A stretch of 64,000 bases of DNA from Mycolicibacterium doricum. GTDB lineage: Bacteria > Actinomycetota > Actinomycetes > Mycobacteriales > Mycobacteriaceae. Position numbers and translations under genes: made by a program. Shown piece by piece: positions 2,692 through 58,493 of this stretch. The notes under the pieces are model-generated. The model searched no databases, was not told the DNA's origin, and saw only the letters and a list, made by a program, of their open reading frames with translations. The stretch lies in contig NZ_AP022605.1 in the NCBI RefSeq assembly GCF_010728155.1, positions 1,860,001-1,924,000 of the forward strand, given 5' to 3'. Position 1 is the stretch's first letter. Each line of letters begins with the position of its first letter.

Positions 2692-2709
2692 TACTACCTA
2701 GCTCAGTAG
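2692..2709. promoter_or_regulatory. Putative BlaI-type operator TAC-N11-GTAG (site 1)
   Basis: TACTACCTAGCTCAGTAG, 60 bp upstream of the ctaD start and about 205 bp from the divergent M23 start. It is the first of 11 copies of this spacing in the window. The repressor assignment is inferred from the two resident BlaI proteins. Confidence 0.6.
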
Positions 2710-2716
2710 GTTAAAG

Positions 2717-2734
2717 TACGTATTTAGTCAGTAG
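2717..2734. promoter_or_regulatory. Putative BlaI-type operator TAC-N11-GTAG (site 2)
   Basis: TACGTATTTAGTCAGTAG, 25 bp downstream of site 1, probably overlapping the ctaD promoter. Two boxes in tandem at 25-bp centre spacing would allow cooperative binding by dimers. Confidence 0.6.
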
Positions 2735-2769
2735 ATTGCAGGCGCGGTTCTAGATCGTGGGAGGACTTT

Positions 2770-55980: not shown

Positions 55981-57771
55981 TCGCCGCCGCGGTGCCATTG
56001 CAGGCGGCGACGTGTGGGTACGCGGGGTGCGACGGCGCAGACTGACCCGGTGCGTAGGTGATCTGCGCAGAATGATCGACGCGATGCACGCGACGATGCC
56101 AATGCTGATCAGCAGCCACTGCACGACCGGGCCCCACCGAGTGGCTGGCGTGAGTCCGGTCATCAGCCTGACCGGGGTGTCTAGGTAGGCAGGTTCGAAG
56201 AATCCGGTGCGGGCCAGTTCGCGACCGTCCGGCCCGACCACGGAACTGATGCCCGTCGTCGCGGCGACCACGACGTAGCGGTTGTGCTCGACGGCGCGTA
56301 ACTTGGCGAATGCGAGCTGCTGCTCGCTCATCGCCTCACCGAAGGTGGCGTTGTTGGACGGGACGGTGAGCAGCTGGGCGCCGTTGAGGACCGACTCGCG
56401 GGCCGCCCGGTCAAAGATCACTTCCCAGCAGGTCACCACTCCGATCGGCACCCCGGCTGCGCGCACTACCCCCGACCCGTCGCCGGGCACGAAGTAGCCA
56501 GCCCGGTCGGCGGAGGACGAGAAGAGCCGGAAGAAGCCGCGCCACGGCAGGTACTCGCCGAATGGTTGCACGATCTGCTTGTCGTGACGGTCACTAGGGC
56601 CGCCGACCGGATCCCAGACGATCACCGAGTTGAGGGTCACCGGGTTGGTGCTGCTGTAACCCGGCCCGGCGAGCACGCCGCCGACGAGGATCGGCGCCTC
56701 GATCGCCCGCGCGGCGATCGTGATCCGTTCGGCGGCGTCGGGATTGGCCAACGGGTCGACGTCGGAAGAGTTTTCCGGCCACACGACGATCTGCGGTTGC
56801 GCAGCACGCCCGGCGCGCACCTCGTCTGCGAGCCGCAGGGTTTCCCGAACGTGGTTGTCCAACACGGCGCGACGTTGGGCATTGAAGTCCAGGCCGAGTC
56901 GCGGCACATTGCCCTGCACCGCGGCCACGGTGACGAGCGGGTCGTAGTTCGCATTGATTGACGGCTGCCGGACCTGCGGCCAGATCACGGCGGTAGCCAA
57001 CAGCACCACACCGATGTACGCACCGGGCAGCACTATCGCGGGAGGGCCCGCGTGGCCGGCACCGGCGGCGTCAAGGCGCCACCAGCGCGTGACCTCGCTC
57101 GCCAGGGCGGCCATGCTGACGCCCAGGAGCACGACCGCAAATGACACCAGCGGCACCCCGCCGATTTGGGCGATCGGCAGAAACGGGCCGTCGGTCTGGC
57201 CGAACCCGACTGCGCCCCAAGGGAATCCGCCGAACGGAACATTGGATTTGGCCCATTCCTGCACAGCCCACACGGCCGCGACCCAGATCGGCCAGCCCGG
57301 CAGTCGGCGCACCAGCACTGCCCCCGCGCCGAACAGCGCGGGAAATACCGACTCCATGCCCGCCAGCGCCAGCCATGGGCCGACGCCGACGAAGCTGCTC
57401 GTCCAGGGCAGCAGCGAAACGTAGAACGCGATGCCGAACAGAAGTCCATATCCGAGCCCGCCGATTTGCGTCGTCGACTCGTGGGTCAGTACCCAGGCCA
57501 GCAGTGCGAACGCGACGATCGCGGTGTACCACCACCCGAACGGCGGAAAGCTGACGCACAACAGCAGGCCCGCAGCGATCGCGCCGGCCATCCGGGGCAG
57601 TCGGCGCAGCACCGCAGCACCTAGACCTGCACCCCGAGGTCTGCTCAACGGCGGGGCGGGGGCCCCATCGGAATTGGCGGACCCGTCGGTGAGCGCCGCC
57701 ATCGCGTCGGTGTCCTCGTCGGGTTGCCCCGCACCGCGCCTCCCGGTCAGCCTGGCCAAGGGGCCGGTCAC
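55978..57771 (-). CDS. lnt: Apolipoprotein N-acyltransferase
   Basis: 597 residues: eight membrane helices then a nitrilase-like domain. The catalytic triad is present: Glu in VWPENSS near 332, Lys in HDKQIVQPFGEYLP near 396, Cys in VTCWEVIFD near 447. Lnt adds the third acyl chain to lipoproteins. The window encodes several lipoproteins (Ldt, FbpA, DUF305). ATG 57771 overlaps the tlpA stop (ATGA). The C-terminus is a basic, Pro-rich tail ending PRRR that runs into the fossil promoter repeat, so the last codons may be secondary. Confidence 0.9.
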   Translation of the reverse strand: MTGPLARLTGRRGAGQPDEDTDAMAALTDGSANSDGAPAPPLSRPRGAGLGAAVLRRLPRMAGAIAAGLLLCVSFPPFGWWYTAIVAFALLAWVLTHESTTQIGGLGYGLLFGIAFYVSLLPWTSSFVGVGPWLALAGMESVFPALFGAGAVLVRRLPGWPIWVAAVWAVQEWAKSNVPFGGFPWGAVGFGQTDGPFLPIAQIGGVPLVSFAVVLLGVSMAALASEVTRWWRLDAAGAGHAGPPAIVLPGAYIGVVLLATAVIWPQVRQPSINANYDPLVTVAAVQGNVPRLGLDFNAQRRAVLDNHVRETLRLADEVRAGRAAQPQIVVWPENSSDVDPLANPDAAERITIAARAIEAPILVGGVLAGPGYSSTNPVTLNSVIVWDPVGGPSDRHDKQIVQPFGEYLPWRGFFRLFSSSADRAGYFVPGDGSGVVRAAGVPIGVVTCWEVIFDRAARESVLNGAQLLTVPSNNATFGEAMSEQQLAFAKLRAVEHNRYVVVAATTGISSVVGPDGRELARTGFFEPAYLDTPVRLMTGLTPATRWGPVVQWLLISIGIVACIASIILRRSPTHRVSLRRRTPRTHTSPPAMAPRRR

Positions 57772-58409
57772 GGGTTCATTGCCGCGACGGCCGCACGAAC
57801 CTGCTCGACGTCACGGAACACCGTGGGCGTGGTGACCCGGCGGACGGTGCCGTCGGTGCCAACGAGGTAGCTCAGCGGCGGGACCGGGGGAGCGCCTAGG
57901 ACCTGCCCGACGGCGTCGGCGTTGCCGAAGGACGGGTAGTGCACACCCAGATCCGCCAAAAGGCTCAGCGCCACGGTGTCGGTGTCCTGCACGTTCATCC
58001 CGACCACCCGCACCGCGCCCGGCTGCCCGGCGTAGGCGTCCAGCACCGGAATCTCTTCCCGACACGGGGCGCACCATGACGCCCACAGGTTGATCAGGGT
58101 CTGCTCACCGGCGAGCGCCGCGCCGACGTTGAACATGGTCCGCGCCCCCAGGCACGACGCCAGCGCACCAGCCAAATCACCCTTGGGCGGCGCCCCCTCA
58201 CGTGGTGTCGGGCATGGCGCCAAGGCCGCACGCGCGGTGAGTCGCGCCAGTTCGCCGGTATCGGCGTCGCCAACGGCGGCAGCGGGCAGGGTAAGCCCGG
58301 GGCTGGAGGCATTAGTGCCGTCGACCTGGGGCGTACGCGGCCAGATCGCCACCGCCATCGCGGCTATTACCACCAGCGCGCACACCGTCCACCGCAGCCG
58401 AGCCCGCAA
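57768..58409 (-). CDS. tlpA: TlpA-type exported thioredoxin
   Basis: 213 residues from TTG 58409, chosen because GGGGAGG lies a few bases upstream and a signal anchor follows immediately; a longer frame reads through the promoter. Signal anchor (5-27), a small insertion, then a TlpA/ResA domain with WCAPC near 120 and PPVPPLSYLVGTDG (cis-Pro) near 175. It reduces exported thiols with electrons from CcdA. Operon with lnt. The upstream BlaI-type dyad is one of the most symmetric in the set. Confidence 0.87.
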   Translation of the reverse strand: MRARLRWTVCALVVIAAMAVAIWPRTPQVDGTNASSPGLTLPAAAVGDADTGELARLTARAALAPCPTPREGAPPKGDLAGALASCLGARTMFNVGAALAGEQTLINLWASWCAPCREEIPVLDAYAGQPGAVRVVGMNVQDTDTVALSLLADLGVHYPSFGNADAVGQVLGAPPVPPLSYLVGTDGTVRRVTTPTVFRDVEQVRAAVAAMNP

Positions 58410-58475
58410 TTGGCACCTCCCCTGTTGCCGAGTTGGCACCGGCTGGGTCCTGGGCGCTACCGACGGCACCCTTCC

Positions 58476-58493
58476 TACTAGGGGCCATAGTAG
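58476..58493. promoter_or_regulatory. Putative BlaI-type operator TAC-N11-GTAG (site 11)
   Basis: TACTAGGGGCCATAGTAG preceded by C: CTACTA-N7-TAGTAG, a perfect dyad, 66 bp upstream of the TTG start of tlpA. It may also act on nearby transcription in the other direction. Confidence 0.65.

What the first reader, a model, noticed from the sequence alone, without database searches (positions are those of the whole stretch)
2692..58493. An 18-bp dyad, TAC-N11-GTAG, repeated 11 times, defines a putative island-wide BlaI regulon
Sequence: exact TAC-N11-GTAG copies at 2692, 2717, 8801, 14169, 18441, 22200, 29056, 30818, 32543, 44561 and 58476 (first base). Six of them are CTAC-N11-GTAG or have T[AC]GTAG symmetry. 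Ten lie within about 25-150 bp upstream of a gene start: ctaD/M23 (two copies), L,D-transpeptidase/ccdA, dsbA, beta-lactamase-like, RipA-like, pseudo-receiver, NlpC/P60, MPT63-like and tlpA-lnt; the eleventh precedes a dead gene. Family knowledge: BlaI binds dyads rich in TAC/GTA, and two BlaI-M56 pairs are present. From memory, BlaI of M. tuberculosis (Rv1846c) also controls respiration genes. Inference: a mobile regulon joining peptidoglycan remodelling, exported thiol chemistry and oxidase biogenesis under an envelope-stress protease.
Basis: partly seen in the sequence, partly recalled or inferred. Interest (0 to 1): 0.95.

Follow-up and report, generated by a model that had tools for sequence, protein, structure and literature searches.

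The report
Mycobacterial copper-island BlaI envelope regulon
A copper-resistance island of environmental mycobacteria, found on plasmids and in chromosomes, repeats one short palindrome in front of spare cell-wall, thiol-redox and respiration genes; the same palindrome lies in front of BlaI repressor genes in other species, so one BlaI repressor and its membrane protease likely switch the whole set on together, predicted to answer attack on exported sulfur chemistry rather than penicillin.

Summary
In detail: all 11 TAC-N11-GTAG copies are exact, against about 1 expected in shuffles. The reading as a BlaI regulon is well supported by computation. (1) A matrix trained on BlaI promoters of other genomes finds 14 sites of 13 bits or more in the window and none in 212 kb of the same genome. 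(2) On four annotated plasmids 47 of 47 sites lie outside listed genes. (3) Among 148 genus genomes a strict motif occurs in 25 of 57 with island-type BlaI and 2 of 91 without; a reversed control shows no link. (4) Canonical mycobacterial BlaI has the same TAC-N11-GTA frame in its own promoter (20 of 20 sampled) and at the ATP-synthase operon (18 of 18), a published BlaI target. New here: island BlaI is a separate subfamily with its own recognition helix and half-site. Its M56 partner lacks a beta-lactam sensor domain but carries two near-invariant cysteines, predicted exported, absent from 21 canonical M56 proteins. Targets (RipA/RipB, L,D-transpeptidase, DsbA/TlpA/CcdA, Lnt, cytochrome oxidase) include functions that copper poisons in E. 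coli. One window BlaI looks to be decaying. Binding and signal are untested.

The parts
675..1064 (-). island-type BlaI repressor, likely the working copy
   Evidence: PF03965 over its cut-off at G000 1860708-1861043; dN/dS about 0.065 against M. rufum; 94% identical to the M. rufum copy
1..678 (-). M56 metalloprotease partner of the left BlaI, cut by the window edge (full ORF L009:4734-5678, 314 aa)
   Evidence: HERAH motif, cysteine before TM3 and cysteine in the C-terminal tail
1074..1090 (.). inexact operator in front of blaI (675-1064)
   Evidence: 17.3 bits
1350..2378 (-). M23 peptidase homologue heading the M23-BlaI-M56 gene row
   Evidence: 81% identical to the gene annotated M23 in M. 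rufum
2557..2573 (.). weak operator candidate between M23 and ctaD
   Evidence: 13.0 bits
2692..2709 (.). operator
   Evidence: exact, 19.3 bits
2717..2734 (.). operator, 36 bp before ctaD
   Evidence: exact, 27.5 bits
2770..4515 (+). target: CtaD, aa3 cytochrome c oxidase subunit I
   Evidence: COX1; NF050116 over its cut-off
8801..8818 (.). operator; next gene is the P-type ATPase at 9349
   Evidence: exact, 22.5 bits; only short ORFs between
13149..14105 (-). target: L,D-transpeptidase with catalytic Cys (SHGC)
   Evidence: YkuD + Big_10; start by M. rufum match; residues
14169..14186 (.). operator between LDT (64 bp) and CcdA (95 bp)
   Evidence: exact, 24.4 bits
14281..15054 (+). target: CcdA-like thiol-electron carrier
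   Evidence: DsbD_TM; start
17668..18327 (-). target: DsbA/thioredoxin-like, CxxC present
   Evidence: below-cut-off thioredoxin and DsbA models; CEAC; M. rufum annotation 'thioredoxin'
18441..18458 (.). operator, 114 bp before dsbA
   Evidence: exact, 22.5 bits
22200..22217 (.). operator before the beta-lactamase-like gene
   Evidence: exact, 20.5 bits
22274..23071 (+). target: exported beta-lactamase-family protein (start 22274 or 22310)
   Evidence: PF13354; start
27556..28965 (-). target: RipA-type NlpC/P60 endopeptidase, catalytic Cys kept
   Evidence: NF033741 over its cut-off; FDCSG
29041..29073 (.). two operators 15 bp apart before ripA and blaI
   Evidence: 14.2 and 17.3 bits
29399..29755 (+). 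second BlaI, likely decaying
   Evidence: Penicillinase_R 2.3e-8; dN/dS about 0.80; one-residue loss at the recognition helix
29752..30675 (+). M56 metalloprotease without sensor domain; C75 and C305
30818..30835 (.). operator, strongest in the window
   Evidence: 30.0 bits
30957..31631 (+). target: orphan OmpR-type response regulator
31687..32457 (-). target: RipB-type NlpC/P60 endopeptidase, catalytic Cys kept
32543..32560 (.). operator, 86 bp before ripB; same 17-mer before ripB on the M. gilvum, M. vanbaalenii and M. poriferae plasmids
44561..44578 (.). operator, 66 bp before the MPT63-like gene
   Evidence: exact, 24.1 bits
44644..45204 (+). target: MPT63-like exported protein (DUF1942)
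55978..57771 (-). Lnt apolipoprotein N-acyltransferase downstream of tlpA
   Evidence: LNT_N + CN_hydrolase; Cys present
57768..58439 (-). target: TlpA/DsbE-like thiol-disulfide protein (start uncertain)
   Evidence: TIGR00385 match below cut-off; WCAPC
58476..58493 (.). operator before tlpA-lnt
   Evidence: exact, 18.8 bits

Best explanation
The dyads are likely operators of an island-type BlaI repressor, predicted to be released when its partner M56 membrane protease cuts it, so that the spare cell-wall, thiol-redox and oxidase genes behind them switch on together. Shown by sequence: the sites, their TAC-N11-GTA frame, their place outside genes, their recurrence before BlaI genes and the same target families in other species, and their tie to island-type BlaI across genomes. 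Inferred: BlaI dimers bind these sites and repress; arrays phased at 15 bp would bind cooperatively. Inferred from the BlaR1 family: the M56 protease cleaves BlaI. Predicted, least certain: the signal is Cu(I) or another thiol-reactive insult felt by two exported cysteines of M56 (C75 in the loop between TM2 and TM3, C305 in the C-terminal tail), which sit where BlaR1 has loop EL1 and its beta-lactam sensor. In this window the left BlaI (675-1064) is likely the working repressor and the second (29399) is likely decaying.
For: Unselected spacing peak at 14 (66 pairs) upstream of 80 island-type BlaI genes of Mycobacterium and Nocardia (the best 80 of 441). Matrix from 42 BlaI-promoter sites of those genomes: 14 window hits of 13 bits or more, 0 in 212 kb of own-genome control, 0.25 per shuffled window. 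47 of 47 hits outside listed genes on four plasmids, before ripA, ripB, dsbA, ctaD, LDT, tlpA and blaI. Strict motif in 25 of 57 genomes with island-type BlaI, 2 of 91 without; reversed control 14 of 57 and 23 of 91; 43 of 54 motif places lie within 12 kb of an island BlaI. Canonical BlaI has the same frame at its own promoter, 20 of 20 sampled, and at the atp operon, 18 of 18; [quoted passage not shown] 60 of 80 BlaI loci hold none of the other island regulators, and 54 of those 60 have a site within 500 bp of blaI. Recognition helix and half-site differ together between subfamilies. M56 cysteines: 69 and 67 of 70 island, 0 of 21 canonical; BlaR1 topology from PMC9834060 passages; best VIA match of the model is BlaR1.
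Against: No binding, cleavage or expression data. 12 of 80 BlaI loci lack a site of 14 bits within 500 bp and 3 of 80 within 2.5 kb (one of the three has only 253 bp of upstream DNA); 32 of 57 BlaI-positive genomes lack the strict 18-mer; 11 of 54 motif places are not within 12 kb of an island BlaI. Related genomes are not independent, and the 80-locus matrix count was partly trained on those loci. Atp sites score up to 16.0 bits with the island matrix, so cross-talk with canonical BlaI is not excluded. Foldseek gave the M56 model no match at E of 0.001 or less. The signal rests on cysteine conservation and target content alone.
Confidence: 0.8

Rival explanations
1. Another island-borne regulator (the orphan response regulator at 30957, the OmpR/kinase pair at 25250-27537, an ArsR or CsoR) binds the dyads, and BlaI is merely linked to them.
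For: The strongest dyad (30818) lies before the orphan response regulator, and dyads lie before its homologue on the M. gilvum, M. vanbaalenii and M. poriferae plasmids too.
Against: Homologues of the response regulators are in 11 of 80 BlaI loci, the kinase in 8, the two ArsR in 9 and 10, CsoR in 1 to 3; 60 of 80 loci have none of them, and 54 of those 60 still have a site before blaI (loci of at most about 20 kb, so distant genes are not excluded). The dyad also occurs in Nocardia and at the separate 1.19-Mb cluster, in front of BlaI. Canonical BlaI shares the frame.
Confidence: 0.08
2. The canonical BlaI (Rv1846c type), not the island BlaI, is the main binder of the island sites.
For: Same TAC-N11-GTA frame; atp sites reach 16.0 bits with the island matrix.
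Against: The canonical matrix scores 13 window sites at most 6.4 bits (mean -2.6), below the lowest of 18 atp sites (7.9). Canonical half-sites are fixed TACKAC while island half-sites are not; the recognition helices differ at six positions, 77-79 of 79 against 20 of 20. 147 of 148 genomes have some BlaI match, so BlaI as such does not explain which genomes carry the strict motif; island-type BlaI does.
Confidence: 0.07
3. The repeats are chance, a compositional effect or remnants of a mobile repeat, with no regulatory role.
For: The island is mobile and mosaic and carries a transposase.
Against: Shuffles and own-genome controls, 47 of 47 outside listed genes, an identical site before ripB on islands of about 83% identity, and flanks that differ between sites.
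Confidence: 0.02

Closest known systems
M. tuberculosis BlaI (Rv1846c) / Rv1845c regulon
   Same: BlaI plus short M56 protease without a sensor domain; orthologues in the genus have the TAC-N11-GTA frame in their own and the atp promoter; respiration targets
   Different: Another half-site (TACKAC), another recognition helix, and none of the three extra M56 cysteines in the 21 canonical relatives compared
Staphylococcal BlaI/BlaR1, MecI/MecR1
   Same: Winged-helix repressor beside a membrane metalloprotease; BlaR1 is the best VIA match of the M56 model
   Different: No penicillin-binding sensor domain, with an exported cysteine pair predicted in its place; an envelope regulon instead of blaZ/mecA
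CopY copper repressor
   Same: Same superfamily, copper-resistance setting
   Different: The window BlaI (675-1064) has no cysteine, so no CXC motif; the operator is not TACANNTGTA; control would run through a protease
E. coli NlpE-CpxAR
   Same: Would work like it: an envelope response to copper and thiol damage with dsbA in the regulon (PMC6593411 passages)
   Different: Unrelated proteins; repressor and protease instead of a two-component system

Membership tests
BlaI/MecI (Penicillinase_R) repressors | PF03965 domain over the curated cut-off | tested here: met
   Five genes in the genome, all over the cut-off, two in the window
BlaI/MecI (Penicillinase_R) repressors | adjacent M56-type membrane metalloprotease | tested here: met
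   window 29752-30675 (Pfam names it M48) and L009:4734-5678
BlaI/MecI (Penicillinase_R) repressors | TAC/GTA dyad in its own promoter | tested here: met
   TAC-N11-GTA with a C or G flank in 52 of 80 loci within 500 bp; matrix site of 14 bits in 68 of 80 within 500 bp, 77 of 80 within 2.5 kb
BlaI/MecI (Penicillinase_R) repressors | binds the dyad and is cut by the protease | not testable with these tools
   needs EMSA, footprint and cleavage assay
BlaR1 beta-lactam receptor | C-terminal penicillin-binding sensor domain | tested here: not met
   window M56 proteins are 307 and 314 aa and end at the last membrane helix; the BlaR1 rows align with BlaR1 residues 1-293 at most
CopY/TcrY | equivalog model TIGR02698 over its cut-off, with CXC motif | tested here: not met
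   32.1 bits against a cut-off of 121.95; no cysteine in the 675-1064 protein
CopY/TcrY | TACANNTGTA operator (TAC to GTA distance 7) | tested here: not met
   distance 14 is the peak; CopY consensus from PMC7253601 passages
canonical mycobacterial BlaI (Rv1846c type) | TACKAC-N5-GTMGTA operator and TVLQR recognition helix | tested here: not met
   island proteins form a separate score class

The most novel reading that the evidence does not exclude
Mycobacteria and Nocardia carry a BlaI-M56 subfamily that has swapped the penicillin sensor for an exported cysteine pair and works as a Gram-positive counterpart of Cpx: it feels copper or thiol damage outside the membrane and derepresses a mobile kit of spare copies of the very exported functions that copper poisons (L,D-transpeptidases, NlpC/P60 hydrolases, Dsb/Ccd/TlpA, Lgt/Lnt, cytochrome oxidase and its assembly).
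Probability: 0.4. Interest if true: 0.88.

Novelty: new variant of a known kind. Interest (0 to 1): 0.76.

Why it matters
BlaI-M56 pairs are usually read as penicillin switches. Here the operator, the repressor subfamily and the sensor-less protease point to an envelope stress switch whose regulon can be read from sequence and moves between species as a block. It gives a testable answer to what BlaI-M56 pairs without a penicillin sensor respond to, and names C75 and C305 as the residues to test. It would also link copper tolerance to cell-wall cross-linking and disulfide chemistry in mycobacteria, for which copper damage is described in E. coli (PMC6593411, passages).

Tried and rejected
Chance or composition: rejected. 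The orphan response regulator, OmpR/kinase, ArsR or CsoR as binder: rejected as main explanation. In one search the query that I labelled CsoR (39171-39446) was not CsoR but a cysteine-rich, YHS-like protein; one search repeats the test with 39496-39825, which is 83% identical to an annotated CsoR-family protein, and with looser limits. CopY-type repressor: rejected. Beta-lactam sensing: not supported, since there is no sensor domain. My first count of the atp promoter, 8 of 18, was wrong because loci from the genome search are not turned to the match strand; corrected to 18 of 18 (of 19 same-genus genomes one, a contig-edge fragment, was dropped). The same slip made read L002 on the wrong strand; that line was not used. 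A viral-contig scan with the window BlaI found nothing. The 1.19-Mb cluster has no near match in the plasmid collection. The tblastn count of M56 was too insensitive and was replaced by an HExxH search, which found an M56 ORF in 66 of 80 loci. The founding M. tuberculosis BlaI regulon paper (Sala et al. 2009) I know only from a reference list; its motif, and the figure with the motif in PMC12565901, could not be compared. Searches for a BlaI-M56 copper or thiol regulon in mycobacteria (also 25 and 89 on copper regulators and copper targets) showed none among the rows listed; the lists were cut (for example 12 of 130, 15 of 562) and subscription papers are not covered. One search shows 25 of 48 families and 25 of 116, so single-member families can be missed.
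Full report
Observation. All 11 TAC-N11-GTAG copies are present and exact; the window holds 18 strand-matches against a mean of 1.14 in shuffles. TAC and GTA starts 14 apart are the commonest close pair in the window (15 pairs). Two of the three extra exact matches, 16317 and 39359, score under 9 bits and lie in ORFs, so they are probably noise. 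In the whole 4.03-Mb genome TACK-N9-MGTAG has 64 strand-matches, and the palindromic ones pile up in the island and in a cluster at 1.189-1.193 Mb around another BlaI-M56 pair, with a DsbA, a CcdA-like protein, a rhodanese, a CtaG and an esterase.

Who binds. I fetched the best 80 of 441 loci around island-type BlaI genes, in named genomes of Mycobacterium, Mycolicibacterium and Nocardia and in MAGs. Without choosing any spacing, TAC..GTA pairs upstream of BlaI peak at 14 (66 pairs); the next peaks, 3 (49) and 10 (43), come at least partly from the same sites, as in TACG..GTACGTA. 52 of 80 loci have a C- or G-flanked TAC-N11-GTA within 500 bp, many 70-140 bp before the gene. A symmetric matrix from 42 distinct such sites (chosen at spacing 14, 55-150 bp before BlaI) gives 14 window hits of 13 bits or more, none in 11 control stretches of 212 kb of the same genome and 0.25 per shuffled window, and adds a site at 1074 in front of blaI. 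On four annotated plasmids all 47 hits of 14 bits or more lie outside listed genes, although only 22-38% of the sequence does; 30 of the 47 are on the three plasmids other than the near-identical M. rufum one. The gene table of that collection is incomplete, so some hits may lie in unlisted genes.

Genome-level test. Since those loci were chosen for BlaI, I also searched 148 genus genomes for TACKNAGNNNCTNMGTAG without regard to BlaI. It occurs in 25 of 57 genomes with island-type BlaI (over 165 bits) and 2 of 91 without (Fisher P 1.4e-10); the reversed pattern occurs in 14 of 57 and 23 of 91 (P 1.0). Three genomes whose best BlaI lies between the two score classes (117-120 bits) were counted as without. 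43 of 54 places lie within 12 kb of an island BlaI, the decaying one at 29399 included. Genomes of one genus are not independent, so the P value overstates the strength.

Other regulators. In the 80 loci the island's response regulators, kinase, ArsR and CsoR proteins have homologues in at most 11 loci each; 60 loci have none, and 54 of these 60 carry a site within 500 bp of blaI.

Canonical BlaI. All 20 canonical BlaI promoters that I sampled from the genus carry TACGAC-N5-GTAGTA, the same 14-base frame. So do 18 of 18 atp-operon promoters; of 11 loci from other families of the order none has the TACKAC form and two have a plain TAC-N11-GTA. BlaI of M. tuberculosis binds the Rv1303 promoter, ahead of the atp genes, in EMSA (PMC12565901, passages seen). 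So the frame belongs to mycobacterial BlaI in general. The island subfamily differs in the inner bases and in its recognition helix (S49 T50 M51 D52 N53 H55 against T V L Q R A; 77-79 of 79 against 20 of 20). The canonical matrix gives 13 window sites at most 6.4 bits, against 7.9-17.9 for 18 atp sites. In the other direction separation is incomplete: the island matrix gives atp sites 8.2-16.0 bits and window sites 14.2-30.0.

Targets. In the 80 loci 279 sites lead to 301 candidate ORFs in 57 clusters. After removing BlaI, 74 non-redundant proteins include NlpC/P60 (5), L,D-transpeptidase (4), DsbA/thioredoxin (4), M23 (3), DUF305 (2), Lnt (2), AhpC/redoxin (2), and single COX1, ResB, Lgt and P-type ATPase. 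Representatives of the largest clusters after BlaI are NlpC/P60 (37 members), LDT (29), COX3 (29) and a thioredoxin-like AhpC family (22). Of 100 control ORFs without a site, drawn from 216 non-redundant ones of the same loci, five are P-type ATPases and five MFS transporters, and the 25 families listed hold no NlpC/P60, LDT, DsbA or M23. Many control ORFs are Nocardia chromosomal genes, so the contrast is partly one of island against chromosome. The ORF calls are mine and some will be wrong. The window RipA, RipB, two LDTs, Lnt, DsbA and TlpA keep their thiol residues. A commentary read in passages states that copper inhibits L,D-transpeptidases, lipoprotein maturation at the Lgt step and disulfide formation in E. 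coli (PMC6593411). The regulon resembles a kit against that damage; this is inference.

State of the pair in the window. BlaI at 29399 has dN/dS near 0.80 against M. rufum (0.0497/0.0623, few changes) and lost one residue at the start of the recognition helix, a change shared with M. rufum; its M56 partner (0.086) and the left BlaI (0.065) are constrained. The left end of the island is more diverged from the M. rufum plasmid (dS 0.43-0.52) than the 27-32 kb part (0.02-0.06), a sign of patchwork exchange. The island lies on plasmids in M. rufum (95% over the 20 kb compared), and parts on those of M. vanbaalenii, M. gilvum and M. poriferae.

Verdict. A real BlaI-type regulon of a distinct subfamily with an unusual sensor candidate: a new variant of a known kind. 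Regulation is predicted, not shown.

Noticed in passing
window 29399-29755: Second BlaI gene evolves nearly without constraint while its M56 partner and the nearby operators are kept.
   Followed up: yes
L024:29125-29171; window 29041-29073: Operators come in arrays: neighbour distance 15 bp is commonest (37 pairs), then 7 (25) and 25 (16); at 15 the GTAC is shared between neighbours.
   Followed up: partly
L174, G000 2783281: The ATP-synthase operon promoter has TACGAC-N5-GTAGTA in 18 of 18 same-genus genomes, apparently the canonical BlaI operator.
   Followed up: yes
Nocardia loci such as L086:8631-9875: In a cluster of 12 ORFs the site near BlaI also faces a gene whose representative is a DNA polymerase IV type (IMS) protein.
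   Followed up: no
window 675-4515 against 27556-32457: Synonymous divergence from the M. rufum plasmid differs about tenfold along the island, so it is a mosaic.
   Followed up: partly
window 45549-48077: 842-aa ORF joins AMP-binding, carrier and acyltransferase-3 domains.
   Followed up: no
window 61860-63620: 586-aa ORF with an N-terminal macro domain.
   Followed up: no
window 43616-44482: rve-type transposase just before the operator of the MPT63-like gene.
   Followed up: no
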